From Saccharothrix ecbatanensis (GTDB lineage Bacteria > Actinomycetota > Actinomycetes > Mycobacteriales > Pseudonocardiaceae): a stretch of DNA of 64,000 bases. The DNA is taken from NCBI RefSeq assembly GCF_014205015.1, contig NZ_JACHMO010000001.1, positions 9,238,001-9,302,000 of the forward strand. The letters are read 5' to 3'. Both the position numbers and the translations under genes were made by a program. Shown here piece after piece: positions 6,331 to 61,573 of this stretch; within the stretch, counting starts at the first letter, position 1, and every line of letters begins with the position of its first letter. Under the pieces are notes generated by a model. That model was not told where the DNA came from. It searched no databases and saw nothing but the letters and a program-made list of their open reading frames with translations.

Positions 6331-6372
6331 TGGCCTCGGCTACCCGCTCGCGCGCCGCGTAATCTCGGGGGC

Positions 6373-7074
6373 ATGGTGGACGAACCGGGTGCGATCACCA
6401 AGGTGCAGCAGAGCGCGGTCGACCACCTGCTGAAGGTGGGCATCAGCGGGTTCGGGCCGTTCAAGGGCGCCGAACGGATGGCCGTGGAGGCGCTGGAGAA
6501 AGGGCTGACGCCCGAGGAGGCGATCAAGCACCTGATCCGGACGCACGTGGCGGCGGCGGGCGTGCAGGGTTTCGCCACGAACGTCGGCGGCCTGATCACG
6601 CTGCCGATCAGCCTGCCCGCCAACCTGACCGCCTCGTACCTGGTGCAGACGCACCTGATCGCGTCGATCGCCGCCGTGTACGGGCACGACCTGGAGAGCG
6701 ACGAGGTGCGCACGGCGATCCTGCTGTGCCTGCTCGGCAACGCCGGGACGGAGCTGCTGAAGAAGGCGGGCATCAAGGTGGGCACCAGGCTCACCATGAA
6801 CCTGATCGAGCGAATTCCCGGCCAGCTCATCCGTGAGATCAACAAGCGGGTCGGGTTCACGCTGCTGGCGAAGTACGGCACCAGCAGGGCGACCGTCACC
6901 CTGGCCAAGGGCGTGCCGCTGGTGGGTGGCGTGATCGGCGGAGCGTTCGACGCCGTCACGACGCGCGCCGTGGGCGCCTTCGCCTCCCGCTTCTTCACCG
7001 AGCGCGAAGCCGCGCCGCCGGCGGTCGTGGACGGCATCGTCATCGACGGCGAGGTGCTGGAGATCCGGGAGTGA
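6373..7074 (+). CDS. EcsC-family protein
   Basis: A 233-aa protein with the EcsC pattern: a helical N-terminus, then GGLITLPISLPANLTASYLVQ and IASIAAVYGHDLESDEVRTA, a Gly-rich hydrophobic hairpin VPLVGGVIGGAFDAVTT, and a short acidic tail. EcsC-family proteins are membrane-associated and poorly understood. I chose ATG 6373, 42 bp from the divergent baeRF gene; the frame remains open far upstream but only as antisense of that gene. The stop codon is part of a long hairpin (7073-7122). Confidence 0.7.
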   Translation: MVDEPGAITKVQQSAVDHLLKVGISGFGPFKGAERMAVEALEKGLTPEEAIKHLIRTHVAAAGVQGFATNVGGLITLPISLPANLTASYLVQTHLIASIAAVYGHDLESDEVRTAILLCLLGNAGTELLKKAGIKVGTRLTMNLIERIPGQLIREINKRVGFTLLAKYGTSRATVTLAKGVPLVGGVIGGAFDAVTTRAVGAFASRFFTEREAAPPAVVDGIVIDGEVLEIRE

Positions 7075-44338: not shown

Positions 44339-44572
44339 TCACCGTCGCACCGTGGGCGGCGCGTCGACCAGCTTCGCCGCCGCCAACGCCGTCGCGGCCA
44401 GTGAACCCGGGGCGGTGGTGGCGTGGTGACGGAGTTCCTCGCGCATCCGGGGATCCCAGAAGCGCTCGATGTGGTCGGCGACGGCCCTCGCCGCCGCGTC
44501 GGGCGGCTGGTGCTGGAACTGGCGGGCGATCTCGTTCACCAGCCGGACGGTGGGCGGGGTCGCGTCGCTCAT
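44339..44572 (-). CDS. fdsD: Formate dehydrogenase delta subunit
   Basis: A 77-aa small subunit of the NAD-dependent molybdenum formate dehydrogenase. Family pattern: VRLVNEIARQFQHQPPDAAA, VADHIERFWDPRMREEL. Last gene of fdsG-fdsB-fdsA-fdsD; its ATG overlaps the fdsA stop by 4 bp. FdsD-type proteins help assembly or stability of the complex. Confidence 0.9.
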   Translation of the reverse strand: MSDATPPTVRLVNEIARQFQHQPPDAAARAVADHIERFWDPRMREELRHHATTAPGSLAATALAAAKLVDAPPTVRR

Positions 44573-47349: not shown

Positions 47350-48893
47350 TGGGTGGCCCTCCTTGGCGTGAAGTCGTCGGCGAAGTGCTGGAGCGCGCTC
47401 CGCACCGGATTGGGCGTCAGGCCGCCCATCGCGCACAACGACCCGTCGGTCATCAGTTCGCAGAGATCCCCGAGCAGGGCCAGGTTGTCGTCGACGTCCT
47501 CGCCGCCGACGATCCGGTCGATCACCTCGACCCCGCGCACCGCGCCGACCCGGCACGGCGTGCACTTGCCGCAGGACTCCTCCGCGCAGAACGAGAACGC
47601 GAACCGCGCCATCGACGCCATGTCCACGGTGTCGTCGAACACCACGATGCCGCCGTGGCCGAGCATCGCGCCCGCCTCGGCGAACGCCTCGTAGTCCATC
47701 GCCAGGTCCAGCCCGGACGCCGGCAGGTACGCCCCGAGCGGCCCGCCCACCTGCACCGCGCGCACCGCACGGCCGGACAGCGTGCCGCCGCCGTGCTCCT
47801 CGATCAGATCCCGCAACGAGATGCCGAACGCCGTCTCGAACACGCCGCCGCGCGCGATGTTGCCCGCGAGCTGGAACACCTGCGTGCCGCGGGACCGCTG
47901 CACGCCCAGCGCCTGGTAGGCCGCGCCGCCGTCGGCCAGGATCGCGGGCACCGAGGCCAACGTCAGCACGTTGTTCACGACGGTCGGCTTGCCGAACAGG
48001 CCGGTGATGGCGGGGATCGGCGGTTTGGCCCGCACCACGCCCCGCTTGCCCTCCAGGCTTTCGAGCATGGAGGTCTCTTCACCGCAGATGTACGCGCCCG
48101 CGCCGACCCGCACCATCAGGTCGAACTTCAGGCCGGAGCCGAGCACGTCGTCGCCGAGCCAGCCCTGCGCGTAGGCGATGTCGATGGCCCGGCGGAACGT
48201 CCGCACCGCTTCGGGGTACTCCGACCGTATGTAGATGTAGCCCTCGGTGGCGCCCACGGCGTGTGCCGCGATGGTCATTCCCTCGATCAGGCAGAACGGG
48301 TCGCCTTCCATGAGCATCCGGTCGGCGAACGTGCCGCTGTCGCCCTCGTCGGCGTTGCAGCACACGAATTTCACCTCACCGGGCGTGTCCGCGACTGTTT
48401 TCCACTTGATGCCCGCCGGGAACCCCGCGCCGCCGCGTCCGCGCAACCCGGAGTCGGTCACCTCGGTGACGGTGGCCGCCGGGCCGATCTCCAGTGCGCG
48501 CCGCAGGCCCGTCAAGCCGCCGTGCGCTTCGTAGTCGTCGGGGGACAGGGGGTCGGTGACGCCTACGCGGGCGAAGCACAGGCGGTTCTGGGCGCGGAAC
48601 CACGGCAGGTCCGCTACGACGCCGACCCGCAGTTCGTGATCGGCGCCGTCGAACATGCCGGCTTTCACCAGACCTGGCACGGCGTCGGCGGTCACCGGCC
48701 CGTACCCGATGCGGCCGGTGTCGGTGACCACCTCGACCAGCGTCTCCAGCCACAACATGCCGCGTGAGCCGTTGCGGACGACGCGGACGGGACGGTCGGC
48801 GAGGACGGCTTCCCTGGTGATCGCGGCGGCCACTTCGTCGGCGCCGACCGACAGTGCGGCGGCGTCGCGGGGGACGTACACGGTGGTGGTCAT
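47346..48893 (-). CDS. fdsB: NAD-dependent formate dehydrogenase beta subunit
   Basis: NADH-forming subunit of 515 aa, NuoF-like. An N-terminal thioredoxin-like part is followed by the FMN/NAD domain (GLRGRGGAGFPAGIKWKTV, CNADEGDSGTFADRMLMEGD, GAYICGEETSMLESLEGKRG) and the C-terminal [4Fe-4S] site in ESCGKCTPCRVG. Passes electrons from FdsA to NAD. Overlaps its neighbours on both sides by 4 bp. Confidence 0.95.
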   Translation of the reverse strand: MTTTVYVPRDAAALSVGADEVAAAITREAVLADRPVRVVRNGSRGMLWLETLVEVVTDTGRIGYGPVTADAVPGLVKAGMFDGADHELRVGVVADLPWFRAQNRLCFARVGVTDPLSPDDYEAHGGLTGLRRALEIGPAATVTEVTDSGLRGRGGAGFPAGIKWKTVADTPGEVKFVCCNADEGDSGTFADRMLMEGDPFCLIEGMTIAAHAVGATEGYIYIRSEYPEAVRTFRRAIDIAYAQGWLGDDVLGSGLKFDLMVRVGAGAYICGEETSMLESLEGKRGVVRAKPPIPAITGLFGKPTVVNNVLTLASVPAILADGGAAYQALGVQRSRGTQVFQLAGNIARGGVFETAFGISLRDLIEEHGGGTLSGRAVRAVQVGGPLGAYLPASGLDLAMDYEAFAEAGAMLGHGGIVVFDDTVDMASMARFAFSFCAEESCGKCTPCRVGAVRGVEVIDRIVGGEDVDDNLALLGDLCELMTDGSLCAMGGLTPNPVRSALQHFADDFTPRRATQ

Positions 48894-49354
48894 CGCATCT
48901 CCGCTTCCGCGTTGATCAGCCCGTCCAGGCGGGTGGGGTCGAGCCGTCCGTGCAGTCGGCCGTTGACTTGGGCGGCTGGTCCGAGGGCGCAGTTGCCCAG
49001 GCAGAACACTTGGGTCAGGGTGACTGTGCCGTCGGTGCTGGTTTGGCCGACCTTTACGCCGTAGGCGGTTTCGGCGTGGGTGACCAGGCGTTCGGAGCCG
49101 ACTGCTTGGCATGCTTCGGCGCGGCACAGTTGGACCGTGACGCGGCCGGCGGGTTCGCTGCGGAAGTCGCTGTAGAAGGTGACGACGCCGTGGACGTCGG
49201 CGCGGGAGAGGTTCAGTTCCTTGGCCACCAACGGGATGACCGACTGGTCGACGTAGCCGAATTCGGCCTGGATGCCGTGCAGGATCGGGAGCAACGCGCC
49301 CCGGTCGCCGCGGTGTGCCTCGATGACGGCGAGCACCCGTTCCACCACGGTCAT
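48890..49354 (-). CDS. fdsG: NAD-dependent formate dehydrogenase gamma subunit
   Basis: A 154-aa NuoE-like subunit with one [2Fe-2S] cluster: LCRAEACQAVG and VFCLGNCALGPAAQ provide the four Cys. Begins the fdsGBAD operon. An operator-like palindrome lies 22 bp before its start. Confidence 0.94.
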   Translation of the reverse strand: MTVVERVLAVIEAHRGDRGALLPILHGIQAEFGYVDQSVIPLVAKELNLSRADVHGVVTFYSDFRSEPAGRVTVQLCRAEACQAVGSERLVTHAETAYGVKVGQTSTDGTVTLTQVFCLGNCALGPAAQVNGRLHGRLDPTRLDGLINAEAEMR

Positions 49355-49375: not shown

Positions 49376-49394
49376 GCAGACTGTATACCGTATC
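49376..49394 (-). promoter_or_regulatory. Oxalate/formate operator-like site A (fds)
   Basis: On the minus strand: GATACGGTATACAGTCTGC, 22 bp before fdsG. The core GGTATACA is palindromic. Thirteen of 18 core positions are identical in sites B (51388-51406) and C (58415-58433), giving ATACKGTATRCRRTCTRC. The GTATAC-type core resembles FadR/VanR-group GntR sites. Confidence 0.7.
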
Positions 49395-49414
49395 CACCAT
49401 ACGCTCAGGCCGGT

Positions 49415-51361
49415 CTAGGCAACAGACACACGGGCATGCCCACCGACACCAGGCCCACCGACACCAGGCCCACCGACACCAGGCCCACCGACACCAGGCC
49501 CACCGACGCCAGGCCCACCGGATCGAGCTCCGCCGGAACCAGCCCCACCGGAACCAGCCCCACCGGAACCAGCCCCACCGGCGCCATTCACACCAGCACC
49601 AGGAGCACCGGCACCAGGCCCACCCGCAAGTGGCAGCACCTCAACCTCGCCGCCCCCAAAGCCCGGCGGCACCACCGCCAACCCGTCCGCCAACGCCGTG
49701 CCCCACAACGTCCCCGGCTGGTCGTGCCCCACCGTCACCGCTAGAGAGCCGGTCACCACCACCGGCACCAACCGCGTGTCGTGTTCGTGCGCCTGGGCCG
49801 CCGCCAACTCGACTTTCCGGGCGGGACGGGGTTCGCGTCCGGACAACGCCTCCATCAAGGGCGTGAGCAACGTCAGCCCGGCAGCCAACGCGGCGAACGG
49901 GTTGCCAGGCAGTCCCACGACGAACCGCCCGTCCGGCAGCACGGCGAGCATTTGGGGATGGCCAGGCCGACACGCGACCCCGTCCACCAACACGTCCGCG
50001 TGCAGCACCCTCAGTGCCTCGTGCAGGTGATCGGCCGGGCCGACGGACGTCGCGCCACCGACGACGAGGACGTCCGCATCGATCTCCCACAAGGTTTCGA
50101 CCAGCGCCCCAGCCTGATCGGAGAGGTACACCACCCCCGCCGACTCCCCGCCCGCCGCAACAATCAATCCGGGCAACACAGGCCCAATGGCATCCCGCAC
50201 CAAACCCGGTCGGGGCAGACCGGCAGTAACCACTTCGTCCCCGGTCACAACGGCGGCCACGCGAGGACGTCGGTGCACGGCAAGGGTGTCGTGCCCAACG
50301 CTCGCCGCGAGCCCGAGGACAGCAGGCGTAACCACCACGCCCGCCGGTAACAGCAGTTCGCCAGCCGGACAAGTCTCACCAAGCCGCCGAATATGCCGAC
50401 CAGCCACCACATCCCCCATGACCAGCCCACCAACCACCTCGACGCACTCCACCGGCAAAACCCCCACCGCCCCACACGGCACCGGCGCCCCAGTAACAAT
50501 CCCGACCGCCTGCCCGTCAGCCAACGACCCCCCAACCCAGCCCGCCGCCGAGTCAGCGGCGAGGCCCGCCACCGGACCCGCCACCGAGTCCACCGGTTCG
50601 CCCGACACTCGACCTGCGGTCGGGTCTGCGGTCGGGTCCACCACTGGGCCCGCCAGTGGGCTTGCCACTGGGCTTGTCGCCGAGCCCGCCGCCGGGTCGG
50701 TCGCTCCGCCCGGTACTGGGTCTGCCGCCAGGCCTGTGGCGGGGTCCGCCGCCAGACCTGTGGTCGGGCGCGGTGCCGAGTCCGCCGCAGGGCCTGTCAG
50801 AGGGTCGACCACCGGGCCTGTTGTTGAGTCGGCTACCGAGTGCGTTGACGAGTGCGCCGCTGAGTTCTTCATCGTGCGCGCCGCTTGGCTTGTCGCTGGC
50901 CCTGTCATCGAGTCCGTCGCTGAGCCTGCTGCCGGTCGCGGCACCGAGTCCGTCGGCGGGTTGGTCGCTGAATGTGCCGCCGGGTTCGTTGCCGGTTCGA
51001 TCTGCTGGCTTGTCGCCGAGGCCGCTGCTGAGTCTGTCGTCGGGACTGTTGGCGGGAGTGTTGGTGGGCCTTTTGTCGGTGCACTTGTCGGCGGGCTGGT
51101 GGAAGCCACCGTGGAGCCTGCGCGTACCCGGCCCACCACGGTCCACGGGCCTTGGCCGGCTACTGCGTAGCCGTCCATCGCCGAGTTGTCGAACGACGGG
51201 ATGGCCGTGAGTGCGTGCAAAGGTGCCGCCAACACCGCGCCCAAAGCCTGCGCCAAAGGTACTTCCACCACGTTCAACGGCTTGCCTGCTTGTCGTGCCG
51301 CCTGCCTTGCCTCTGTCCACGGGATTCGCATGGTGGTCCGCCCGACTGAAGGGGTGGTCAC
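49415..51361 (-). CDS. moeA: MoeA-type molybdopterin molybdenumtransferase with large low-complexity insert
   Basis: Inserts molybdate into adenylylated molybdopterin; needed for FdsA. Family blocks: PSFDNSAMDGYAVAG (55-69), VGIVTGAPVPCGAVGVLPVE (286-305), VVTGDEVV (371-378), VVGGATSVGPADHL (433-446), CRPGHPQMLAVLPDGRFVVG and LPGNPFAALAAG (464-495). A canonical MoeA is about 400 aa; this one is 648 because residues 84-276 are a Pro/Ala/Thr/Ser/Asp-rich repeat insert and residues 579-645 a Gly-rich tail with five PGVGG units. The frame stays open throughout. GTG 51361 or ATG 51331 as start. Divergent from the OFA transporter. Confidence 0.88.
   Translation of the reverse strand: MTTPSVGRTTMRIPWTEARQAARQAGKPLNVVEVPLAQALGAVLAAPLHALTAIPSFDNSAMDGYAVAGQGPWTVVGRVRAGSTVASTSPPTSAPTKGPPTLPPTVPTTDSAAASATSQQIEPATNPAAHSATNPPTDSVPRPAAGSATDSMTGPATSQAARTMKNSAAHSSTHSVADSTTGPVVDPLTGPAADSAPRPTTGLAADPATGLAADPVPGGATDPAAGSATSPVASPLAGPVVDPTADPTAGRVSGEPVDSVAGPVAGLAADSAAGWVGGSLADGQAVGIVTGAPVPCGAVGVLPVECVEVVGGLVMGDVVAGRHIRRLGETCPAGELLLPAGVVVTPAVLGLAASVGHDTLAVHRRPRVAAVVTGDEVVTAGLPRPGLVRDAIGPVLPGLIVAAGGESAGVVYLSDQAGALVETLWEIDADVLVVGGATSVGPADHLHEALRVLHADVLVDGVACRPGHPQMLAVLPDGRFVVGLPGNPFAALAAGLTLLTPLMEALSGREPRPARKVELAAAQAHEHDTRLVPVVVTGSLAVTVGHDQPGTLWGTALADGLAVVPPGFGGGEVEVLPLAGGPGAGAPGAGVNGAGGAGSGGAGSGGAGSGGARSGGPGVGGPGVGGPGVGGPGVGGPGVGGHARVSVA
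49440..49580. repeat. 15-bp tandem repeats in the moeA tail
   Basis: Five copies of a 15-bp unit (CCACCGACACCAGGC on the plus strand, the last with one change) at 49440-49514, then about four copies of a related unit (CCACCGGAACCAGCC). They encode the PGVGG and GSGGA runs at the MoeA C-terminus. Confidence 0.92.
50534..51112. repeat. Degenerate repeats encoding the MoeA insert
   Basis: About 580 bp with irregular 9-21 bp repeats such as GAGTCCGTCGCTGAG, GCCACTGGGCTTG and CTGCCGCCAGGCCTG. They keep the moeA frame open and encode motifs like DPATGLAAD, TGPAADS and SVAGPVAG. No transposon features. Confidence 0.8.
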
Positions 51362-51387
51362 GGGTGTATGCAGGAGGTAGGCTACTT

Positions 51388-51406
51388 AATACTGTATACG
51401 ATCTGC
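51388..51406 (+). promoter_or_regulatory. Oxalate/formate operator-like site B (moeA/OFA)
   Basis: AATACTGTATACGATCTGC in the 63-bp gap between the divergent moeA and OFA-transporter genes. Same 18-nt core as sites A and C. Likely controls both directions. Confidence 0.7.
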
Positions 51407-51424
51407 AAGGCGGGGTGAGCGCTC

Positions 51425-52744
51425 ATGCAGGTGCGTGAAGTCCTCGATGTCTACGGCCGTCGCTACCGCATCGGCGAGACCGATCATGAACTGCTGGGTG
51501 GGCCACGGGGTCGGGTTGCGTGGCTTAGCGGCCTCGCCATGCTTGTCACCGGCATGGCGCAGTATGGGTTCGGCGCACTCGTTCCAGTCCTGGAGCAGCG
51601 GTGGGGTTTGGTTGAGCTGTGCTGGGCGTTCGCGCTTTGGGCCGCTTGCCAAGCGGGCATTGCGTTTCCGGCTGCATGGCTGCGCGAGAGAGGTCTGCTG
51701 CCACCACGCAACGCCGTCGTCCTCGGCGCGGTGCTGAGCGCGATCGGGCTGCTGACCCTGGGGTCCGCCGACCACCTACTCATCCTCTACCTCGGCTACT
51801 CCCTTGTCGGCGGCATCGGCACGGGCCTCGTCTACGCGACCTGCGTCGGCACCGTCATCCGCTGGTTCCCCGACCGCGTCACCCCCCGCATCGCCCTCAT
51901 CACCAGCACGTTCGCCCTCGGCGGCGTGCCCTTCGCACTGGCCGCCGGACTCTGGCTCGCACCCGACAACCGGACCGCCTTCCTCTCCACAGCCGCCCTC
52001 GTGACCCTCATCGTCGTCACCGCCTGCGGCCTGCCACTGCGCGACCCGCCACGAAACTGGTGGCCCGCCGACATCGACCCGAGACAACGCGAAACCCGCA
52101 CCCACCGCACCAACCGACCCGCCATCCGCCACTTCAAACCAGGCGAGGCGCTGCGCAGCGGTGTCCTCGTGCCGATGTACGTCACCGTGGTGTTCGCAGC
52201 AGCCGTGTCCCTGTTCGACCTGGTCTTCCTAGCCGCCCTGGCGGCAGACACGAACGGCACGGTGTTCGCGGCGGTGGCGTTGGCCGTGCTGGCGGCATCG
52301 GCGGGCGCGGGACGTTTGCTGGCGGGGCGGATCTCCGAGGCCATCGGTCGGCGGCTCACCCTCCGGCTGGCGATGGCCACCGGCGGCCTCGCCCAACTCG
52401 TCCTGCTGTTCGGCGGACAACGACAGGACGCCGTGGCACTGCTGATCGGCGCGGGCGTCGCAGGACTGGGCACGAGCTGCTGCTACTCACTGCTTGTCGG
52501 CCTGGTCCGCGAGTACTTCGGCGAGGACACCGCACCGCTCAACTTCGCCGTCATCTACAGCGCCAAAGCCCTCGGCGGCGTCGTGGGCGTCGGCCTCGCC
52601 TCACTGATCGTCGTCGCCCACGGCTACCCGGCCACCTTCCTCACCGCCGCCGCCCTCGGCGTGGCGGGCGCCGCGCTGGCCGGCCGGTTCGGTCACCCCG
52701 GACGCCCCCACCGCCTCCTCCCACACCCGCGTGAGGCGTCGTGA
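51425..52744 (+). CDS. OFA-family MFS transporter (oxalate/formate type)
   Basis: A 439-aa membrane protein with about 12 segments and the OFA start pattern WLSGLAMLVTGMAQYGFGAL. Other family features: GYSLVGGIGTGLVYATCVGT, VIRWFPDRVTPRIAL, and GLVREYFGEDTAPLNFAVIY with AKALGGVVGVGL. Likely imports oxalate, exchanging formate or carbonate. Starts 19 bp after operator B. Overlaps the next gene by 4 bp. Confidence 0.88.
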   Translation: MQVREVLDVYGRRYRIGETDHELLGGPRGRVAWLSGLAMLVTGMAQYGFGALVPVLEQRWGLVELCWAFALWAACQAGIAFPAAWLRERGLLPPRNAVVLGAVLSAIGLLTLGSADHLLILYLGYSLVGGIGTGLVYATCVGTVIRWFPDRVTPRIALITSTFALGGVPFALAAGLWLAPDNRTAFLSTAALVTLIVVTACGLPLRDPPRNWWPADIDPRQRETRTHRTNRPAIRHFKPGEALRSGVLVPMYVTVVFAAAVSLFDLVFLAALAADTNGTVFAAVALAVLAASAGAGRLLAGRISEAIGRRLTLRLAMATGGLAQLVLLFGGQRQDAVALLIGAGVAGLGTSCCYSLLVGLVREYFGEDTAPLNFAVIYSAKALGGVVGVGLASLIVVAHGYPATFLTAAALGVAGAALAGRFGHPGRPHRLLPHPREAS

Positions 52745-53310
52745 CCACCCGCCTGCCCCGACTCGCCCCGGGCCGACACCCCAGCCCCGCGCACGGCTGC
52801 TGCCTGCTGGAACTGGTCTCCACGCTGGCCGACGAGGAGTGGACCGACCGACCCGCAACGGTGCACCCCGTCCTCGCCGCCGTGGCACGCTGCGTGAACG
52901 ACTTCAGCACACCGGACGGCCGCCGCGCCCTACCCGAGTTCGCCATCCCACTCCTGGGAACCGCGCAAGCCCGCTGCACCGACGCCCTGGTCGACCACTG
53001 CCTCCGCGCGGCCGGCCAACCGCGCGCCCGGTGGATGAAGTGGTGGCCGGCCCTTGCGGTCCACAGTGCCACCAAAGCCGTAGCGGCTAGAGCGGGGGAC
53101 GAAGCCCTGCGCCGCCTGCTGGCCGACTGCACCGCCCTGTGTCAGAGAACAGAGGAGTGTCCACATGGGACGCGTGACGAGCAGGCGCCGGGTAGTGCGA
53201 CTGGTGGACGGCGTAGCGGACGCCCGCGCCGACACCCTCACCGTGGAAGAACCGCTGGAGATCCGGGTCGCCGGCAAACCCCTGTCCGTCACCATGCGCA
53301 CGCCCGGTGA
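52741..53310 (+). CDS. Conserved hypothetical protein overlapping fdhD
   Basis: The first 140 residues look like an actinobacterial family with a CLMELVS-type start (GCCLLELVSTLADEEWTDRP, HPVLAAVARCVNDF, PLLGTAQARCTDALVDHCL). The remaining 49 residues, which overlap fdhD in another frame, are Arg/His-rich and look non-native. A one-base frameshift near 53150 would instead end the gene at 53174, so a sequencing error or real decay is possible. GTG start within the OFA stop. Function unknown. Confidence 0.6.
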   Translation: MTTRLPRLAPGRHPSPAHGCCLLELVSTLADEEWTDRPATVHPVLAAVARCVNDFSTPDGRRALPEFAIPLLGTAQARCTDALVDHCLRAAGQPRARWMKWWPALAVHSATKAVAARAGDEALRRLLADCTALCQRTEECPHGTRDEQAPGSATGGRRSGRPRRHPHRGRTAGDPGRRQTPVRHHAHAR

Positions 53311-53998
53311 CGATTTCGACCTGGCCGCCGGCTTCCTGGTCAGCGAAGGCGTCGTCCGCAGCGCCGAACACATCACCACCATCCGCTACTGCGCCGGCGC
53401 GACCGAGAACGGCGCCAACACGTTCAACGTGCTGGACGTGGGTCTGGCCGCAGGCGTGCCCCCACCCGACCCGTCGATCGAACGCAACTTCTACATGACG
53501 TCGTCCTGCGGCCTGTGCGGCAAGGCCAGCCTTGACGCCGTCCGCACCAGCGTGACCTGGCCGGTAGCCGACGACCCCCTCACCATCGACACCGACACCC
53601 TCGCCACCCTGCCGAACGAACTCCGCGCCGCCCAACGGGTCTTCGACCGCACGGGCGGCCTCCACGCGGCCGGGCTGTTCAACGCCGAGGGCCGGCTGCT
53701 GTGCCTGAGGGAGGACGTCGGCCGGCACAACGCCGTCGACAAGGCAGTCGGCTGGGCCATGAAGAACCACAGCCTCCCCCTGACGTCCACCGTGCTCATG
53801 GTCAGCGGCCGGGCGTCGTTCGAGCTGGTGCAGAAGGCAGCGATGGCCGGCATCCCGATGCTCGCCGCCGTCTCCGCCCCCTCCTCGCTGGCGGTCGACC
53901 TGGCCGCCGAACTGGGTATGACCCTGGTCGGTTTCCTGCGCGGCACCTCGATGAACGTCTACACGGGCCGCCACCGCCTCCTCGACCGCCCGCGGTAG
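53165..53998 (+). CDS. fdhD: Formate dehydrogenase accessory sulfurtransferase FdhD
   Basis: A 277-aa protein that delivers sulfur to the molybdenum cofactor of formate dehydrogenase. Typical start MGRVTSRRRVVRLVDG, DTLTVEEPLEIRVAG, RTPGDDFDLAAGFLVSEG, the sulfur-carrying pair C115-x-x-C118 in SSCGLCGKA, and ALCLREDVGRHNAVDK-like CLREDVGRHNAVDKAVG. ATG follows GAGGAG. Together with MoeA it serves FdsA. Confidence 0.95.
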   Translation: MGRVTSRRRVVRLVDGVADARADTLTVEEPLEIRVAGKPLSVTMRTPGDDFDLAAGFLVSEGVVRSAEHITTIRYCAGATENGANTFNVLDVGLAAGVPPPDPSIERNFYMTSSCGLCGKASLDAVRTSVTWPVADDPLTIDTDTLATLPNELRAAQRVFDRTGGLHAAGLFNAEGRLLCLREDVGRHNAVDKAVGWAMKNHSLPLTSTVLMVSGRASFELVQKAAMAGIPMLAAVSAPSSLAVDLAAELGMTLVGFLRGTSMNVYTGRHRLLDRPR

Positions 53999-54021
53999 TG
54001 ACCCACGCCATAGTCCGACCC

Positions 54022-54048
54022 TGTCAGGGATCGCGGCGCTGTCCCGTT
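54022..54048 (+). promoter_or_regulatory. ECF41-type promoter candidate
   Basis: TGTCAGG (54022-54028), 16-nt spacer, CGTT (54045-54048), close to the TGTCACA-16-CGTC pattern reported for ECF41 sigma factors. It precedes the oxidoreductase gene that is followed by an ECF41-like sigma factor, suggesting autoregulation. Confidence 0.45.
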
Positions 54049-54082
54049 CAAGGGGGCGAGCGAACCAGACAGGAGCACGAAC

Positions 54083-55273
54083 ATGGCGCACCGCATCATC
54101 GTCCTCGGGGCCGGATACGCCGGGGCCTATGCCGCTGGAAACCTCGCCCACCGACTCCACCGCGACGACTTCGAGATCACCGTGGTCAACGCCGAACCCG
54201 ACTTCGTCGAGCGGCTGCGGCTGCACCAGCTCGCCGCCGGCCAGGACCTGCGCCGCCACGAACTGGCGGAGTTGTTCGCGGGGACCGGCATCCGCCTGCG
54301 GCTGGCGCACGTCACCGCGATCGACCCCGAGCACCGGACCGTCACCGTGACCGACGGCGACGGCACCGACCGGCTCGAGTACGACACCCTCTTCTACTCG
54401 CTGGGCAGCACCGCCGCCGACCACGACGTGGAAGGCGTGGACGAGCACGCCTTCCACGTCGCCACCAAGCCCGCCGCACTACGCCTGCGCCGCCGACTGG
54501 ACGAGCTGGGCGAGAACGGCAGGGTGCTCGTCGTCGGCGGCAACCTGACCGCGATCGAGGCGGCCACCGAGCTCGCCGAATCCCGGCCCGGACTGCGCGT
54601 CACCCTCGCCACCACCGGTGAGCTGGGCGGTTGGCTGGGCACGAAGGCCCGCGACCACCTGCTGCGAGCCTTCGACCGGTTCGGCATCACGGTCCACGAG
54701 CACACCACCATCGACCACGTCGACGCGACCGGCGCCACCGCCGCCGACGGCACCCGCTTCGACGCCGACGCGACCGTGTGGGCCGCTGGCTTCGCCGTCC
54801 ACCCGATCGCCGCGGCCAGCGGACTGGACGTCACGGACGACGGCAAGATCCTGGTCGACCGCATGATGAGGTCGGTCTCGCACCCCGACGTCTACGCCGC
54901 GGGCGACAGCGTCCACGTCATCGGCGACAACGGCCGGCCGCTGCCGATGTCCTGCGCCTCGGCCGGGGTCACCGGCATGCAGGCCGTGGCCGCGATCGTC
55001 GGGGACCTGACCGGTCGCAAGATCTCGAACACCGCGCTGAGCTACTACGGCAACCACATCAGCCTCGGTCGGAACGACGCGATCTTCCAGGTGGTCGACG
55101 GCGACGTGCGCTCGAAGTCGTGGGCACTGCGCGGACGCACGGCCGCGCGCTTCAAGGCGGCGGTCCTCTGGGGGTCGGTCTTCGGCGTGGGCCACCCGAC
55201 GTTCGGCATGCCGACCCGCAAGCACCGCCTGGCGGCCGAGTCCGTCCGCTCGACCGTGACGGTCACCGCCTAA
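54083..55273 (+). CDS. FAD-dependent NADH dehydrogenase-like oxidoreductase
   Basis: A 396-aa pyridine-nucleotide-disulfide-type flavoprotein resembling NDH-2. FAD motif VLGAGYAGAYAAGNLA, NAD motif VLVVGGNLTAIEAATELAE, and the late FAD motif HPDVYAAGDSVHV. No membrane segment. Lies 10 bp before an ECF41-like sigma factor gene; such sigma factors typically control a neighbouring oxidoreductase. Confidence 0.9.
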   Translation: MAHRIIVLGAGYAGAYAAGNLAHRLHRDDFEITVVNAEPDFVERLRLHQLAAGQDLRRHELAELFAGTGIRLRLAHVTAIDPEHRTVTVTDGDGTDRLEYDTLFYSLGSTAADHDVEGVDEHAFHVATKPAALRLRRRLDELGENGRVLVVGGNLTAIEAATELAESRPGLRVTLATTGELGGWLGTKARDHLLRAFDRFGITVHEHTTIDHVDATGATAADGTRFDADATVWAAGFAVHPIAAASGLDVTDDGKILVDRMMRSVSHPDVYAAGDSVHVIGDNGRPLPMSCASAGVTGMQAVAAIVGDLTGRKISNTALSYYGNHISLGRNDAIFQVVDGDVRSKSWALRGRTAARFKAAVLWGSVFGVGHPTFGMPTRKHRLAAESVRSTVTVTA

Positions 55274-55283
55274 CGTGGTGTGC

Positions 55284-56219
55284 ATGGACAGCGCGACCGT
55301 GGAGCGTTTCGAGGCCAGCCGCGACCGGCTGGCCTCGTTGGCGTATCGATTGCTGGGCTCGGCCGCGGACGCCGAGGACGCCGTGCAGGACGCGTTCCTG
55401 CGCTGGCAGGCGGCCGATCGGGACCACATCGAGGTGCCCGAGGCGTGGCTGACCAAGGTGGTCACGAACCTGTCCCTCGACCGGCTCCGCTCGGCGAAGA
55501 CCCGGCGTGAACGCGCGGTCGGAGCCTGGCTGCCCGAACCGCTGCTCGACGGCGACCCGATGCTGGGCCCGGCGGACACCTTCGAGCAGCGCGAATCGGT
55601 GAACCTGGCGGTGCTGACGCTGATGGAACGCCTCACTCCGGTCGAACGGGCCGTGTACGTCCTGCGCGAGGCCTTCTCCTACAGCCACGCCGAGATCGCC
55701 GAGATCCTGGACATCACCGAGTCCGCGAGCCAGCAGCACGCCCACCGCGCCCGGCGCCACATCGCCGCCGGGCGCAACGTCGCGGAGGTCGACCGCGCCT
55801 CCGCGCGCCGGATCGTCAAGGCGTTCATCGCAGCCGCTGCCTCGGGCCAGACCGAACAGTTGGTGGCCTTGCTGACCGCGGACGCGACCGCGATCTCCGA
55901 CGGCGCCGGGTTGACCGAGAAGCTGCTGACGTACACGGACCCCGAACAGTTCGCCGCCGCGGCGCGAGCCTCCTTCAAGCCGACTCCGGCGAAGCGCAAG
56001 CTGATCGGCGGCTCGCCGTCGATCCACGCCGGAATGATCAACGGCTCCCCGGCCATCCTCGCCGTGCTCGAGGACCGGGTCGTCGGCGTGGCGATCCTGG
56101 AGGTCCGCGACGGCAAGGTCGCCACCGTGCGCGGCATGGCCTCACCCGCCCGGCTCGGCCGCCTCACCGACGAATGGCGGCGGGGCGGGCACGACGACCC
56201 GATCATCGACTTGTGGTGA
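55284..56219 (+). CDS. ECF41-type sigma factor (SigJ-like)
   Basis: A 311-aa extracytoplasmic-function sigma factor. Sigma region 2 (LASLAYRLLGSAADAEDAVQ, DAFLRWQAAD), region 4 (LTPVERAVYVLREAFSYSHA, EIAEILDITESASQQHAHRA), and a C-terminal SnoaL-like domain (about residues 180-300) that regulates activity in place of an anti-sigma factor. ATG 55284 is chosen; GTG at 55275 or 55278 is possible. Confidence 0.92.
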   Translation: MDSATVERFEASRDRLASLAYRLLGSAADAEDAVQDAFLRWQAADRDHIEVPEAWLTKVVTNLSLDRLRSAKTRRERAVGAWLPEPLLDGDPMLGPADTFEQRESVNLAVLTLMERLTPVERAVYVLREAFSYSHAEIAEILDITESASQQHAHRARRHIAAGRNVAEVDRASARRIVKAFIAAAASGQTEQLVALLTADATAISDGAGLTEKLLTYTDPEQFAAAARASFKPTPAKRKLIGGSPSIHAGMINGSPAILAVLEDRVVGVAILEVRDGKVATVRGMASPARLGRLTDEWRRGGHDDPIIDLW

Positions 56220-56225
56220 CCGGGT

Positions 56226-57113
56226 TCAGGGTCGGGACAGCACCTCCCGCAGCAGCCGGGCCGTCTCGCTCGGCGTCTTCCCGACCCTGACGCCCGCCGC
56301 CTCCAGCGCCTCCTTCTTGGCCTGGGCCGTTCCCGCCGACCCGGAGACGATCGCGCCCGCGTGACCCATGGTCTTGCCCTCGGGCGCGGTGAAGCCCGCG
56401 ACGTACCCGACGACGGGCTTGGTCACGTGCGCGCGGATGTACTCGGCCGCGCGCTCCTCCGCGTCACCGCCGATCTCGCCGATCATCACGATCGCCGACG
56501 TCTCCGGGTCCGCCTCGAACGCGGCCAGCGCGTCGATGTGGGTCGTCCCGATCACCGGATCACCGCCGATCCCGATCGCCGTCGTGAACCCGATGTCCCG
56601 CAGCTCGTACATCAGCTGGTACGTCAGCGTCCCCGACTTCGACACCAGCCCGATGGGCCCCGGTCCGCAGATGTCGTCCGGGATGATGCCCGCGTTCGAC
56701 TTGCCGGGACTGATCACGCCGGGGCAGTTCGGCCCGATGATCCGGGTCCGACCACCCGACGCGACCGCGTGCGCCCAGAACGCCGCCGTGTCGTGCACCG
56801 GCACGCCTTCCGTGATCACCACCGCCAACCCGATCCCGGCGTCGACGGCCTCCATCACCGCACTCTTGGTGAACGCGGGCGGCACGAACACCACGGTCAC
56901 GTCGGCGCCCGTGGCCTCCATCGCCGACGCCACGCTGCCGAACACGGGCAGCACGTGACCGTCGAAGTCGACCATCTCCCCGGCCTTGCGCGGGTTCACG
57001 CCGCCCACGATCCGCGTCCCGGACTTCAGCATCCGCTTGGTGTGCTTGGCGCCCTCGGCGCCGGTCATGCCCTGCACGATCACCCGGCTGTCCGCATCGA
57101 CGAACACGGCCAT
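56226..57113 (-). CDS. sucD: Succinyl-CoA synthetase alpha subunit (second copy likely)
   Basis: A 295-aa CoA-ligase alpha subunit. CoA-binding N-terminus ([19 protein letters not shown]), [19 protein letters not shown] and the active phospho-histidine H251 in [14 protein letters not shown]. Lies 1 bp after sucC. In an oxalate locus it may supply succinyl-CoA as first CoA donor for oxalate; this role is inferred. Confidence 0.93.
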
Positions 57114-57114
57114 C

Positions 57115-58275
57115 TCACACCCCCACGGAAGCGAGTTCGGCGGCCTTGTCGGCCGCGTTGTCCATCGTGTCCACGACTGTCACCAACGGGTGCGCCGCGT
57201 CGGCGAGGATGCGCCGGCTCTCGGCCACGTTGTTCCCATCCAAGCGCACCACCAACGGCTTGGTGGCCGCGTCGCCGAGCATCTCCAGCGCCGCCACGAT
57301 CCCGTCCGCCACCGCGTCGCACGCCGTGATGCCGCCGAACACGTTGACGAACACCGACCGCACGTCCGGGTCGTTGAGGATGATGTCCAGCCCGTCGGCC
57401 ATGACGGACGCCGACGCCCCGCCGCCGATGTCGAGGAAGTTCGCCGGCCGCACGCCGCCGTGCCGTTCACCCGCGTACGCGACAACGTCCAAAGTGGACA
57501 TGACGAGCCCGGCGCCGTTGCCGATCACGCCGACCTGGCCGTCCAGCTTCACGTAGTTGAGCCCGCGTGAACGCGCCGCCGCCTCCAACGGGTCCTCCGC
57601 CGAGACGTCCGTCAACGCCTCGTGCGCCGGGTGCCGGAACGCCGCGTTGCCGTCCAGCGTGATCTTGCCGTCCACCGCGATCACGTCCCCCGACCGCGTG
57701 AGCACCAACGGGTTCACCTCGACCAGCGTGGCGTCCTCCGCCACGAACGTCTCCCACAGCCGGACGACCACGTCGGCGATCCGGTCGGCCACCTCGGGCG
57801 GGAATCCGGCCGCCGTCACGATCTCGTGCGCGACCGTCAGGTCCACCGACGTCACCGGCACGCGTGCCAGCGCGTGGGGCCGGTGGGCGGCCACTTCCTC
57901 GATGTCCATCCCGCCCTCGACGGACGCCATGGCGAGGAACGTCCGGTTCGCCCGGTCGAGCAGGAACGAGACGTAGTACTCCGAGACGATGTCGCTGGCC
58001 TCCACGACCAGCACTTCGCGCACGACGTGCCCCTTGATGTCCATCCCGAGGATGTCCGAGGCCGCCTCCCGTGCGTCCGATGGCGTGCGCGCCAGGCGGA
58101 CACCGCCCGCCTTGCCCCGGCCGCCGGTCTTCACCTGCGCCTTCACCACAACGGTTCCGCCGATCGATGATGCCGCGGCGTGCGCCTCGTCCGGTGTCAC
58201 GGCTAGTACGCCGTGGGGCACCGGGACGGCGTGCGCCGCGAACAGATCCCTGGCCTGGTGTTCGTGCAGATCCAC
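57115..58275 (-). CDS. sucC: Succinyl-CoA synthetase beta subunit (second copy likely)
   Basis: A 386-aa ATP-grasp subunit. Start [20 protein letters not shown] (GTG), [48 protein letters not shown] and [23 protein letters not shown] precedes the start at 10 bp. Divergent from the ThDP enzyme gene, with operator site C between them. Confidence 0.93.
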
Positions 58276-58312
58276 GGCAGAAGTCCTCTCCGCGCGGTGG
58301 GGCGCCGATGTC

Positions 58313-58345
58313 GGACAACCGCCGGACAACCGCCGGGCAACTGCC
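58313..58345. repeat. 11-bp tandem repeat upstream of sucC
   Basis: GGACAACCGCC, GGACAACCGCC, GGGCAACTGCC: three units in a row, 38-70 bp upstream of the sucC start. Confidence 0.85.
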
Positions 58346-58414
58346 GGATTCGGCAATTTCCGGTGTTCCAGCCTCTGGACATCGGCGCGAACACGAGCAA
58401 CTATATGGCTACCC

Positions 58415-58433
58415 CATACGGTATGCAATCTAC
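58415..58433 (+). promoter_or_regulatory. Oxalate/formate operator-like site C (sucC/ThDP enzyme)
   Basis: CATACGGTATGCAATCTAC in the 235-bp gap between sucC and the ThDP gene. Shares the core with sites A and B, with ATACGGTAT as the palindromic part. A TATATG element lies just upstream. Confidence 0.7.
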
Positions 58434-58510: not shown

Positions 58511-60331
58511 ATGGCGCGGACAGCGACCGAGGCTGCGACGGGCGACAGCGCGGGACCGGCAGGCGAGCCCGACACCGGTCCGGCACAGATCTCCGGCCCA
58601 GCACAGGATCCCGGCCCGGAACAGCTCTCCGGCCCGGAAGCGACCTCCGGCCCGGAAGCGACCTCCGGCCCGGAACTGATCTCCGGCGGACACCTGGTGG
58701 CCAAGGCACTCAAGGCCGAGGGCATCGACACGATCTTCACCCTCTGCGGCGGCCACATCATCGACATCTACGACGGCTGCGTGGACGAGGGCATCGCGGT
58801 GATCGACGTGCGGCACGAGCAGGTCGCCGCGCACGCCGCCGACGCCTACGCCCGCGTCACCGGCAAACCGGGCTGCGCCGTGGTGACGGCCGGACCGGGC
58901 ACCACCGACGCGGTCACCGGCGTGGCCAACGCGTTCCGCGCCGAGAGCCCCATGCTCCTCATCGGCGGCCAAGGAGCGTTGAGCCAGCACAAGATGGGCT
59001 CACTCCAGGACCTGCCGCACGTCGACATGATGACCCCGATCACCAAGTTCGCCGCCACCGTCCCGTCCACCGCGCGGATCGCCGACCTGGTGTCGATGGC
59101 GTTCCGCGAGGCCTACAACGGCGCGCCCGGACCGTCGTTCCTGGAGATCCCGCGTGACGTGCTCGACGCGTCGGTGCCGGTGGACCAGGCGCGCATCCCG
59201 GAGGCCGGCCGCTACCGGGCGTCGACGCGCAACGCGGGCGACCCGCAGTCGATCGAACGGCTCGCCGGCCTGCTGGTGCACGCGAAGAAGCCGGTCGTGC
59301 TGTTCGGCAGCCAGGTCTGGACGACCCGGGCCACCGACTCCGCGGTCGAACTCGTCCGCACGCTCAACATCCCCGCCTACATGAACGGCGCCGGCCGCGG
59401 CACGCTCCCGCCCGGCGACCCGCACCACTTCCAGCTGTCCCGCCGCTACGCGTTCGACAACGCCGACGTGATCGTCATCGTCGGCACCCCGTTCGACTTC
59501 CGGATGGGCTACGGCCGCAGGCTCTCCGCCAAGGCCACCGTGGTGCAGATCGACCTGGACTACCGCACGGTCGGCAAGAACCGCGACATCGACCTCGGCA
59601 TCGTCGGCGACGCGGACCTCGTGCTCAGCGCGGTGACCCGGTCCGTCACGGGCGACACGGGCGCGGTGGCGCGCAAGCCGTGGCTGGAGGAATTGCAGGC
59701 GGTGGAGGAGAAGGCGCGCACGAAGCGGTTGCCGCAGCTGCACTCCGACGCCACCCCGATCCACCCGTACCGGCTGGTGCACGAGATCAACGAGTTCCTG
59801 ACCGAGGACTCGATCTACATCGGCGACGGCGGCGACATCGTCACGTTCTCCGGCCAGGTCGTGCAGCCGAAATCGCCCGGCCACTGGATGGACCCCGGTC
59901 CGCTGGGCACGCTCGGCGTCGGCGTGCCGTTCGTGCTTGCGACCAAGCTGGCACGACCGGACAAGGAAGTGGTGGCGCTGTTCGGCGACGGCGCGTTCAG
60001 CCTCACCGGCTGGGACTTCGAGACGCTGGTCCGCTACAACCTGCCGTTCGTCGGCATCGTCGGCAACAACTCGTCGATGAACCAGATCCGCTACGGCCAG
60101 GCGCAGAAGTACGGCGTGGCGCGGGAACGGATCGGCAACACGCTCGGCGACGTCCGCTACGACGAGTTCGCCCGGATGCTCGGCGGCTACGGCGAAGAAG
60201 TCCGTGACCCCAAGGACATCGCGCCCGCGCTCCAACGCGCGCGTGAATCAGGCCTGCCTTCCCTGATCAACGTCTGGGTCGATCCCGACGCGTACGCGCC
60301 CGGAACCATGAACCAGACCATGTACAAGTAG
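58511..60331 (+). CDS. ThDP-dependent enzyme, probable oxalyl-CoA decarboxylase
   Basis: A 606-aa thiamine-diphosphate enzyme. The first about 58 residues are a repeat-rich extension (GPAQ, SGPEAT units); the catalytic part begins at [20 protein letters not shown]. Catalytic Glu in [18 protein letters not shown], ThDP/Mg motif [20 protein letters not shown] to GNNSS. It resembles acetolactate-synthase/2-hydroxyacyl-CoA-lyase-like proteins more than E. coli Oxc, but frc follows 12 bp later and operator C precedes it, so decarboxylation of oxalyl-CoA to formyl-CoA is the likely role. Alternative: 2-hydroxyacyl-CoA lyase. AAGGAG precedes ATG 58511. Confidence 0.75.
58575..58689. repeat. 18-bp repeats in the ThDP-enzyme N-terminus
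   Basis: About five diverged copies of a unit like GGCCCGGAAGCGACCTCC, two adjacent copies perfect. They encode SGPEAT-type repeats in the N-terminal extension. Confidence 0.88.
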
Positions 60332-60343
60332 AGGAGCGGTGCG

Positions 60344-61573
60344 ATGGGCAAGGCTCTCGATGGCGTCCGGGTCCTCGACCTGACGCATGTCCAGTCCGGA
60401 CCGTCGGCCACGCAGATCCTCGCGTGGCTGGGCGCCGACGTGATCAAGGTGGAGGCGCCGGGCCGGGGCGACATCACCCGCGGCCAGCTGCGCGACCTGC
60501 CCGGCGTGGACAGCCTCTACTTCACCATGCTGAACGCGAACAAGCGCAGCATCACCTTGAACATGAAGAGCGACGAGGGCAAGGCGGTGTTCGGCCAACT
60601 CGTCACCACCGCCGACGTCCTGGTCGAGAACTTCGGACCCGGTGTGGTGGACCGGTTCGGGTTCACCTGGGAACGGCTCCAGGACTTGAACCCGGGCTTG
60701 GTCTACGCGTCCATCAAGGGCTTCGGCCCCGGCCGGTACGCCGACTTCAAGGCGTACGAGGTCATCGCGCAGGCCATGGGCGGCTCGATGGCCACCACCG
60801 GCTTCGAGGAGGGCCCGCCGCTGGCGACCGGCGCCCAGATCGGCGACTCGGGCACCGGCATCCACCTCGTGGCGGGCATCCTCGCGGCCCTGTTCCAACG
60901 CACGTCCACCGGCCGCGGCCAACGCGTGCAGGTGGCCATGCAGGACGCCGTGCTCAACCTGTGCCGGGTCAAGCTGCGAGACCAGCAACGGCTTGCGCAC
61001 GGCCCGCTGGTCGAGTACCCGAACGAGCACTTCGGCGACGAGGTGCCGCGCTCGGGCAACGCGTCCGGCGGCGGGCAGCCCGGCTGGGCGGTGCGCTGCG
61101 CGCCCGGCGGACCCAACGACTACATCTACGTGATCATCCAGCCGGTCGGCTGGCAGCCCATCACCGACCTCATCGGCAAGCCGGAGCTGGCAGACGACCC
61201 GGCGTGGGCCACTCCCGAAGCCCGGCTGGACAAGCTGGACAAGGCGTTCGCGCTGATCGAGGAGTGGACCGAGCGGCACACCAAGTGGGAGGTCCTGGAC
61301 GCGCTCAACGCCCACGACATCCCGTGCGGGCCGATCCTGTCCACCCGGGAGCTGATCGAGGACGAGACGCTGGCCGAACTCGGCACCGTGGTCGAGGTCG
61401 AGCACCCCGAGCGCGGCCCGTACAAGACCGTGGGCAGCCCGTTGAAGCTGTCCGACTCGCCGGTGGACGTGCGGCGGTCCCCGCTGCTCGGCGAGCACAA
61501 CGACGAGGTGCTGGCCGAACTCGGCTACCTGCCCGAGCAGTTGGCGCGGCTGAGGACCGCCGGCGCCATCTGA
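60344..61573 (+). CDS. frc: Formyl-CoA:oxalate CoA-transferase
   Basis: Class III CoA-transferase of 409 aa moving CoA from formyl-CoA to oxalate. Very close to E. coli Frc by eye: [80 protein letters not shown] and [11 protein letters not shown]. The catalytic aspartate is D168 in GDSGTG (D169 in E. coli numbering). GAGGAG precedes the ATG. Confidence 0.96.

What the first reader, a model, noticed from the sequence alone, without database searches (positions are those of the whole stretch)
49376..58433. Three copies of one operator tie together formate and oxalate genes
ATACKGTATRCRRTCTRC occurs at 49376-49394 (minus), 51388-51406 and 58415-58433, each in a promoter gap: fdsG, moeA/OFA transporter, and sucC/ThDP enzyme. 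Thirteen of 18 positions are invariant and I noticed no copies elsewhere in the window. The GTATAC-like core fits a FadR-type GntR regulator, none of which is encoded here.
Basis: partly seen in the sequence, partly recalled or inferred. Interest (0 to 1): 0.75.

Follow-up and report, generated by a model that had tools for sequence, protein, structure and literature searches.

The report
GntR-controlled oxalate and formate regulon
Three short DNA switches beside oxalate- and formate-breakdown genes look like real operators, probably bound by a GntR-type repressor encoded just outside the window, and the same pairing recurs in many related soil bacteria.

Summary
Confirmed and extended. The 18-bp motif occurs three times, each in a promoter gap, with no other copy in the window at up to 3 mismatches. 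These are the genome's only exact copies; a fourth (2 mismatches) lies 5.2 kb past the window end. In 25 genomes of the genus all 16 exact copies fall in this cluster, in the 6 genomes with formyl-CoA transferase (frc). In 397 genomes of the order, 27 of 27 frc genomes carry this GntR, against 3 of 370 others. In 80 named loci strong sites precede oxc 33/36, panE 38/41 and sucC 34/38, but none of four downstream genes (0/102). Sites lie at or just after predicted promoters, so repression is likeliest. The operator combines a dyad with a 7-bp repeat. The regulator family is known; limited open-access searches showed no paper on this regulon. Binding, effector and expression are untested.

The parts
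49376..49393 (-). operator 1, ATACGGTATACAGTCTGC, 21 bp before the fdsG start codon
51389..51406 (+). operator 2, ATACTGTATACGATCTGC, between moeA and the MFS transporter gene, 18 bp before the latter's ATG
58416..58433 (+). operator 3, ATACGGTATGCAATCTAC, between sucC and the oxc-like ThDP gene, 77 bp before the latter's ATG at 58511. (Operator 4, the gntR gene and the panE-like gene lie beyond the window end; their places are in the full report.)
48890..49354 (-). fdsG, formate dehydrogenase gamma subunit
   Evidence: NF004638 201.4 bits vs cut-off 198
47346..48893 (-). fdsB-like subunit (NuoF family, below NuoF cut-offs)
44569..47286 (-). fdsA, formate dehydrogenase alpha subunit
   Evidence: TIGR01591 928 vs 666 (scanned from an upstream start, 47481); start as
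49415..51361 (-). moeA-like gene with low-complexity expansions
51425..52744 (+). MFS transporter related to oxalate/formate antiporters (below their cut-offs)
53165..53998 (+). fdhD, formate dehydrogenase sulfurtransferase
   Evidence: NF001943 393 vs 269
56226..57113 (-). sucD
57115..58275 (-). sucC
58511..60331 (+). oxc-like ThDP enzyme (2-hydroxyacyl-CoA lyase / oxalyl-CoA decarboxylase group)
60344..61573 (+). frc, formyl-CoA transferase
   Evidence: TIGR03253 659 vs 504
61613..63745 (+). ADP-forming acyl-CoA ligase (below the equivalog cut-offs)

Best explanation
The three motifs are operators of one local regulon for oxalate use. A GntR-family repressor with an FCD effector domain, encoded 3.9 kb past the window end, binds them (and a fourth copy beside its own gene) as dimers. 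They lie at or near the transcription starts of the transporter, oxc-frc-ligase, formate dehydrogenase and panE-like genes, probably also sucCD and moeA, and so block RNA polymerase. A ligand from the pathway (oxalate, oxalyl-CoA, formyl-CoA, glyoxylate or formate) would bind the FCD domain and release it, switching on uptake, activation, decarboxylation and formate oxidation together. Shown by computation: the motif, its conservation, the gene, and its co-occurrence with frc. Inferred: direct binding, repression, the inducer.
For: Own genome: 3 exact copies, all here; a fourth intergenic copy by gntR/panE. Genus: 16 of 16 exact copies in the cluster; 6 of 6 frc genomes have them, 0 of 19 others. 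Order, 397 genomes drawn alike in three searches: GntR (1e-60) in 27 of 27 frc genomes (1e-180) and 3 of 370 others (Fisher 7e-39, not corrected for relatedness); exact motif in 19 of 27 and 2 of 370. Of the 34 order-level motif rows, 26 loci were read: 25 hold oxc, frc, MFS or panE beside the site. Of the 8 frc genomes without the exact pattern, 7 have clear variants in the oxc or oxc-panE gap and the eighth weaker ones. 80 named loci: PWM score 18 or more upstream of oxc 33/36, panE 38/41, sucC 34/38 (oxc and sucC, and gntR and panE, often share one gap); acs 0/42, nramp 0/17, terC 0/16, sucD 0/27. Motif-blind k-mer enrichment recovers GTATGC, ATACTGTA and GTATGCAAT. Geometry: TGGACA-17/18-NANNAT ends 10-12 nt before the operator in 9 of 9 oxc promoters, 6 of them from one genus. 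A related FCD-GntR, Atu1419, binds ATGTATACAT (passages of PMC7797058).
Against: No binding or expression data. GntR occurs without frc in G009, G017, G020 and G373, G393. Frc occurs without GntR in G034, and a 55% Frc-like protein without it in G059. In the phylum-wide scan the exact motif turned up in only 4 genomes besides the own one, while the reversed control pattern turned up in 10, so outside the order a bare match means little; in the order scan the control had 2 hits against 34. The good site is far from gntR in this genome, and only 35 of 80 named loci reach 18 before gntR; before fdsG 7 of 26 do, and most Streptomyces sites are weak. The PWM was built from 35 sites, some of which it then scored in near relatives. 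The ordinary-gene control was contaminated by unmasked cluster genes (44 of 368 at 18 or more). Promoter boxes were sought by a free optimisation with recalled weights.
Confidence: 0.78

Rival explanations
1. The same GntR binds these sites but acts mainly as an activator, or as a repressor at some genes and an activator at others.
For: The mode of action is not fixed by sequence; in some rows the best-scoring -10 lies inside the operator (panE rows and own fds).
Against: Predicted -10 boxes lie just before or inside the operators in most rows, and three of the four own operators are 18-21 bp from a start codon; activators usually bind upstream of -35 (general knowledge).
Confidence: 0.12
2. 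Another regulator (the ECF sigma factor at 55275-56219, the IclR-like gene at L015:15225-15950, or an unlinked protein) reads the motif, and gntR is only a neighbour.
For: Both genes lie in or near the cluster here. The loci were fetched around gntR or frc, so gntR's presence there is partly by construction.
Against: Of the 9 forty-kb loci with frc, 6 lack the ECF gene and 3 lack the IclR gene; neither was found in 20 further 16-20-kb loci (genes farther off would be missed). GntR tracks frc in 27 of 27 order genomes in a search not tied to the locus. The dyad core resembles a known FCD-GntR operator, and two of four phylum-level outlier motifs lie within 300 bp of a GntR gene of this type.
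Confidence: 0.07
3. The motif is a core promoter or 5' RNA element, not an operator.
For: TACKGT inside the motif fits TAnnnT (recalled actinobacterial -10), and in the four own sites the motif points towards the gene it precedes.
Against: Distance to the start codon varies (18 to 77 bp here). Separate -10-like hexamers precede it in most fds, MFS and oxc rows. A core promoter element should be scattered over the genome; exact copies are confined to this cluster.
Confidence: 0.03

Closest known systems
VanR-type FCD GntR regulators (Atu1419 of Agrobacterium fabrum, PDB 6za3)
   Same: GntR wHTH plus FCD fold (Foldseek E 1.6e-9); operator ATGTATACAT (PMC7797058 passages) shares the GTATAC core and 7 of 10 positions with operators 1 and 2; there too a palindrome overlaps a -10 box
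   Different: Controls hydroxycinnamate genes; operator a short 10-bp palindrome, whereas here it is 18 bp with a 7-bp repeat and a biased CTRC end; about 25% identity in the structural alignments
E. coli NanR sialoregulon repressor
   Same: FCD GntR; operators of closely spaced short direct repeats placed downstream of the polymerase site (PMC8012715 passages)
   Different: NanR subfamily cut-off not met (93.8 vs 260 bits); unrelated pathway; GGTATA repeats versus ATRCNRT heptamers
PmiR of Pseudomonas aeruginosa (7xp0)
   Same: Closest solved sequence (E 7.8e-19) and second fold match
   Different: 30% identity; different pathway, as far as I recall propionate/2-methylcitrate
Oxalate genes of Methylobacterium extorquens and the frc-oxc genes of E. 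coli (both recalled; for the first only a search listing seen)
   Same: frc and oxc in one pathway; in Methylobacterium also a panE-type oxalyl-CoA reductase and formate oxidation
   Different: In E. coli these genes answer to acid-stress regulators (recalled); I know of no equivalent FCD-GntR and operator in either

Membership tests
FCD subfamily of GntR regulators | N-terminal GntR winged HTH (PF00392) | tested here: met
   69.7 bits vs cut-off 27
FCD subfamily of GntR regulators | C-terminal FCD domain (PF07729) | tested here: met
   99.3 bits vs cut-off 24.3; all-helical C-terminal part in the model, mean pLDDT 85.2; FCD structures such as PmiR, VanR and TM0439 are among the fold matches
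FCD subfamily of GntR regulators | Conserved Asp/Asn and three His that bind a metal (recalled) | tested here: inconclusive
   N159, H163, H205 and H227 invariant in 21 sequences; metal binding and geometry not tested
FCD subfamily of GntR regulators | Binds a dyad operator at target promoters | not testable with these tools
   Dyad centred in the motif; no binding assay possible
NanR | NanR subfamily score | tested here: not met
   93.8 vs cut-off 260 bits
NanR | Operator of short direct repeats | tested here: inconclusive
   Among lags 1-12 in the 18-bp core, lag 7 is the clear positive one (+14.5; lag 12 is +0.5), but a dyad at centre 7.5 scores +13.5 as well
Formyl-CoA transferase (TIGR03253) | Equivalog cut-off | tested here: met
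   659.4 vs 504.2
Oxalyl-CoA decarboxylase (TIGR03254) | Equivalog cut-off | tested here: not met
   249.4 vs 739.4; closest solved sequences are 2-hydroxyacyl-CoA lyases, then lyases and oxalyl-CoA decarboxylases
Oxalate/formate antiporter (TIGR00890, TIGR04259) | Family cut-offs | tested here: not met
   110.8 vs 374.85 and 112.4 vs 335
NAD-linked formate dehydrogenase FdsGBA | Alpha and gamma subunits above cut-off | tested here: met
   TIGR01591 928 vs 666; NF004638 201.4 vs 198; NAD as acceptor is inferred from the NuoE/NuoF-like subunits

The most novel reading that the evidence does not exclude
A dedicated oxalate sensor-repressor runs a whole-pathway regulon across the actinomycetes, reading an operator made of phased pseudo-palindromic heptamers (dyad centres every 3.5 bp). 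Several dimers could then stack cooperatively as NanR does, giving a sharp switch that couples oxalate breakdown to molybdenum-dependent formate oxidation and perhaps to metal handling (Nramp and TerC genes).
Probability: 0.3. Interest if true: 0.65.

Novelty: new member of a known kind. Interest (0 to 1): 0.52.

Why it matters
Oxalate is abundant in soil and plants, and bacteria that use it return its carbon as carbonate (general knowledge). In the papers searched I saw no dedicated regulator of the frc pathway in actinomycetes. A regulator gene, four operators in one genome and a motif usable across many actinomycete genera make its control directly testable. The motif also marks genes of unproved role (panE-like reductase, MFS, sucCD, moeA) as probable members of the oxalate pathway.

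Tried and rejected
Promoter-element, ECF and IclR readings: see rivals.

Own-genome copies with 1-2 mismatches outside the cluster: nine places. I fetched six regions covering seven of them. Four (the sites of L004, L006, L007 and L009) lie inside called genes. The site of L010 lies just upstream of a called, probably partial, hydroxylase ORF. The pair L011/L012 lies in a gap without a called gene. None of these six regions holds a GntR of this type. L005 and L008 were not examined. L013 is operator 1 shifted by 7 bp.

Phylum-wide scan: the motif in 4 of 395 genomes besides the own one, the reversed control in 10; no oxalate gene was matched at three of the four new places (L109, L110, L111), and the fourth is L090 of the order scan, also without one. 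Two of the four have a GntR gene of this type in the locus. So no enrichment can be claimed there.

Ordinary-gene control is not clean and is not used; downstream genes of the cluster are used instead, and of these I chose acs, nramp, terC and sucD; fdsB (2/49) and aldh (2/13) had a few hits. Multi-genus alignment of the oxc-sucC gap was uneven because several start codons were only estimated; used only to spot the TGGACA block. Of the 35 sites, four (second oxc and sucC sites, the G039 gntR-panE site and one unplaced G047 site) were left out of the promoter test.

Papers: ten searches. 'oxalate + GntR + formyl-CoA transferase' and 'oxalate degradation + GntR' each gave only PMC5987411, whose passages link no GntR to oxalate genes. 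'oxalotrophic + GntR' and 'oxalate catabolism + transcriptional regulator + Streptomyces' gave none. Of the other searches I saw listings only, apart from passages of PMC8012715 and PMC7797058. Subscription journals are largely missing from this library.
Full report
OBSERVATION. They lie in the gaps before fdsG, between moeA and an MFS gene, and between sucC and a ThDP enzyme. The quoted spans were one base too long, and 13 of 18 positions are invariant. Because the pattern was written from the sites, I relied on whole-genome and cross-genome tests rather than on the shuffles.

WHOLE GENOME. The window is G000:C1:9238001-9302000 of a 9.69-Mb chromosome. A looser pattern (ATACNGTATRCNNTCTRC) has three exact matches, all in the window. 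At up to 2 mismatches 14 rows appear, one of them operator 1 shifted by 7 bp, against 3 for the reversed control. One of these rows is at window-equivalent 69162.

BEYOND THE WINDOW END (coordinates continued from the window; L015 position plus 59999). The DNA (L015) holds a gene at 67852-68589 (-), L015:7853-8590, with GntR (69.7 bits, cut-off 27) and FCD (99.3, cut-off 24.3) domains. Operator 4, ATACTGTATGCAATCACC, is at 69162-69179 (+), L015:9163-9180, 18 bp before a divergent panE-like gene at 69198-70223 (L015:9199-10224), which an aldehyde dehydrogenase gene follows. A GCATAC-N8-GTATGC pair at 68632-68651 (L015:8633-8652), about 43 bp upstream of gntR, may be a degenerate autoregulatory site; sites with TTTCGTATGCAAT precede gntR in Actinacidiphila L221 and Mycobacterium L217 and L218. 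No orthologue of the regulator is in the window. The genus is probably Saccharothrix: three same-genus genomes (G005, G010, G020) have contigs of exactly the lengths of named Saccharothrix records.

GENES. frc meets its equivalog cut-off, and so do fdhD, fdsA, fdsG and sucCD. The ThDP enzyme and the MFS transporter do not meet the oxalyl-CoA decarboxylase or oxalate/formate antiporter cut-offs; the ThDP enzyme is closest to solved 2-hydroxyacyl-CoA lyases and oxalyl-CoA decarboxylases. Their oxalate roles are inferred from the company they keep. That a panE-type gene can encode oxalyl-CoA reductase is recalled (search listing only).

CO-OCCURRENCE. Relatives set (60 genomes, own included): Frc (1e-120) in 11, GntR (1e-40) in 13, both in 9. 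G034 and the 55% Frc-like G059 lack the GntR; G009, G017, G020 and G050 (39% identity, probably not an orthologue) lack Frc. Genus (25 genomes): 16 exact motif copies in 6 genomes, all in the cluster, the same 6 that have Frc; GntR (1e-90) in 9; reversed control 0. Order (397 genomes, drawn alike in each search): Frc (1e-180) in 27, GntR (1e-60) in 30, both in 27. The pattern ATACNGTATRCNNTMTRC gives 34 rows in 21 genomes, 19 of them Frc+; the reversed control gives 2. Of the 34 rows I read 26 loci: 25 hold oxc, frc, the MFS gene or panE, and L090 (G129) does not. Fisher for Frc x GntR is 7e-39, not corrected for shared ancestry. Phylum (396 genomes): 4 further genomes with the motif, 10 with the control, so a bare match means little at that distance. 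In 40-kb loci of relatives the motif (0-3 mismatches) recurs at fdsG, MFS, oxc and gntR/panE, not at every gene in every genome; G020 and G009 had none, G017 only the gntR/panE one, and G050 one hit inside a gene. Of the eight Frc+ order genomes without the exact pattern, seven have variants such as ATACGGTATGCAGTATGT in the oxc or oxc-panE gap; G114 has weaker ones.

NAMED RELATIVES. Best PWM score of 18 or more from 350 bp upstream of the matched gene part to 20 bp inside it: oxc 33/36, panE 38/41, sucC 34/38, gntR 35/80, frc 12/54, MFS 10/40, fdhD 9/15, fdsA 10/50, fdsG 7/26, aldh 2/13, fdsB 2/49; acs 0/42, nramp 0/17, terC 0/16, sucD 0/27. oxc with sucC, and gntR with panE, often share one gap, so these counts overlap. 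22 of 25 Streptomyces loci carry fdsG, mostly with weaker sites; in five of the six printed Streptomyces maps with fdsG it is next to gntR. 26 of the 80 loci showed no Frc; I searched the genomes of 20 of them: 9 have a full-length Frc of 73-81%, 10 have at best a full-length 53-55% relative, and 1 (L158, Saccharothrix sp. S26) has none at 1e-120. Motif-blind k-mer counting, 28 genus-gene groups (oxc, panE, sucC) against 49 (acs, nramp, terC, sucD, frc, fdsB, aldh), returned TACAGT, GTATGC, ATACTGTA and GTATGCAAT, and also TGTCCAGA (12 vs 0), the TGGACA block discussed below.

ANATOMY OF THE SITE. The weighted motif of 35 sites is ATACTGTATGCAATCTRC. It is a dyad centred at TGTA|TRCA, and it also repeats itself at 7 bp: lag 7 scores +14.5, lag 12 scores +0.5 and the other lags from 1 to 12 are negative; dyad centres 4.0, 7.5 and 11.0 score +9.1, +13.5 and +6.8. 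So ATACTGT-ATGCAAT-CTGC can be read as heptamers ATRCNRT. Whether dyad or repeat is what the protein reads is open. Atu1419, an FCD-GntR, binds ATGTATACAT (PMC7797058, passages). NanR, another, binds GGTATA repeats cooperatively, downstream of the polymerase site (PMC8012715, passages).

POSITION. In 9 of 9 oxc promoters (6 from one genus) TGGACA-17/18-NANNAT ends 10-12 nt before the operator, which puts the operator just after the expected start. TAnnnT ends 0-12 nt before the operator in 10 of 31 sites, against 86 of 3,900 random non-coding positions; the 31 sites are not independent and four of the 35 were left out. In the panE rows and own fds the best -10 falls inside the operator. All this fits a repressor better than an activator.

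REGULATOR. The model (21-sequence alignment, mean pLDDT 85.2) has the wHTH plus helical FCD fold; the top fold matches include a Brucella GntR, PmiR, McbR and VanR Atu1419. N159, H163, H205 and H227 are invariant in the 21 sequences; that these are FCD metal ligands is recalled. Of the 9 forty-kb loci with frc, only 3 carry the ECF sigma gene and 6, all of the genus, the IclR gene; these loci were fetched around gntR, so gntR's presence there is by construction, and its link to frc rests.

VERDICT. What is new is the regulon, not the kind of regulator. Direct binding, inducer and response remain to be shown.

Noticed in passing
window 49415-51361: The moeA-like ORF (648 aa) carries low-complexity Thr/Ala/Pro and Gly repeats (15-, 12- and 24-bp tandem arrays); in G013 the gap between the two flanking operators has room for just over 400 aa at most.
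   Followed up: partly
L015:8730-9100 (window-equivalent 68729-69099): A tandem-repeat tract (22-48 bp units) fills the gntR-panE gap in this genome; in five genus relatives (G001, G005, G013, G017, G019) gntR is only about 100-155 bp from the operator.
   Followed up: partly
L015:3883-5316 and 5957-7057: An Nramp-family transporter (NF037982, no Pfam match) and a TerC/Alx-type protein recur in many of the clusters, suggesting metal handling linked to oxalate.
   Followed up: no
window 58511-60331: The ThDP enzyme next to frc falls far below the oxalyl-CoA decarboxylase cut-off and closest to 2-hydroxyacyl-CoA lyases: possibly a divergent oxalyl-CoA decarboxylase.
   Followed up: partly
L016:6487-6504 and 6627-6644 (G000:C1:8356486, 8356626): Two motif-like copies (2 mismatches) 140 bp apart, far from the cluster, in a gap without a called gene.
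   Followed up: partly
L110 (G465), L111 (G638): Two distant phylum members carry a matching site within 300 bp of a GntR gene of this type: perhaps a general operator type of the subfamily, though the control pattern is at least as common there.
   Followed up: partly
G009, G017, G020, G373, G393: These genomes keep the GntR orthologue but have no Frc match at the cut-offs used.
   Followed up: partly
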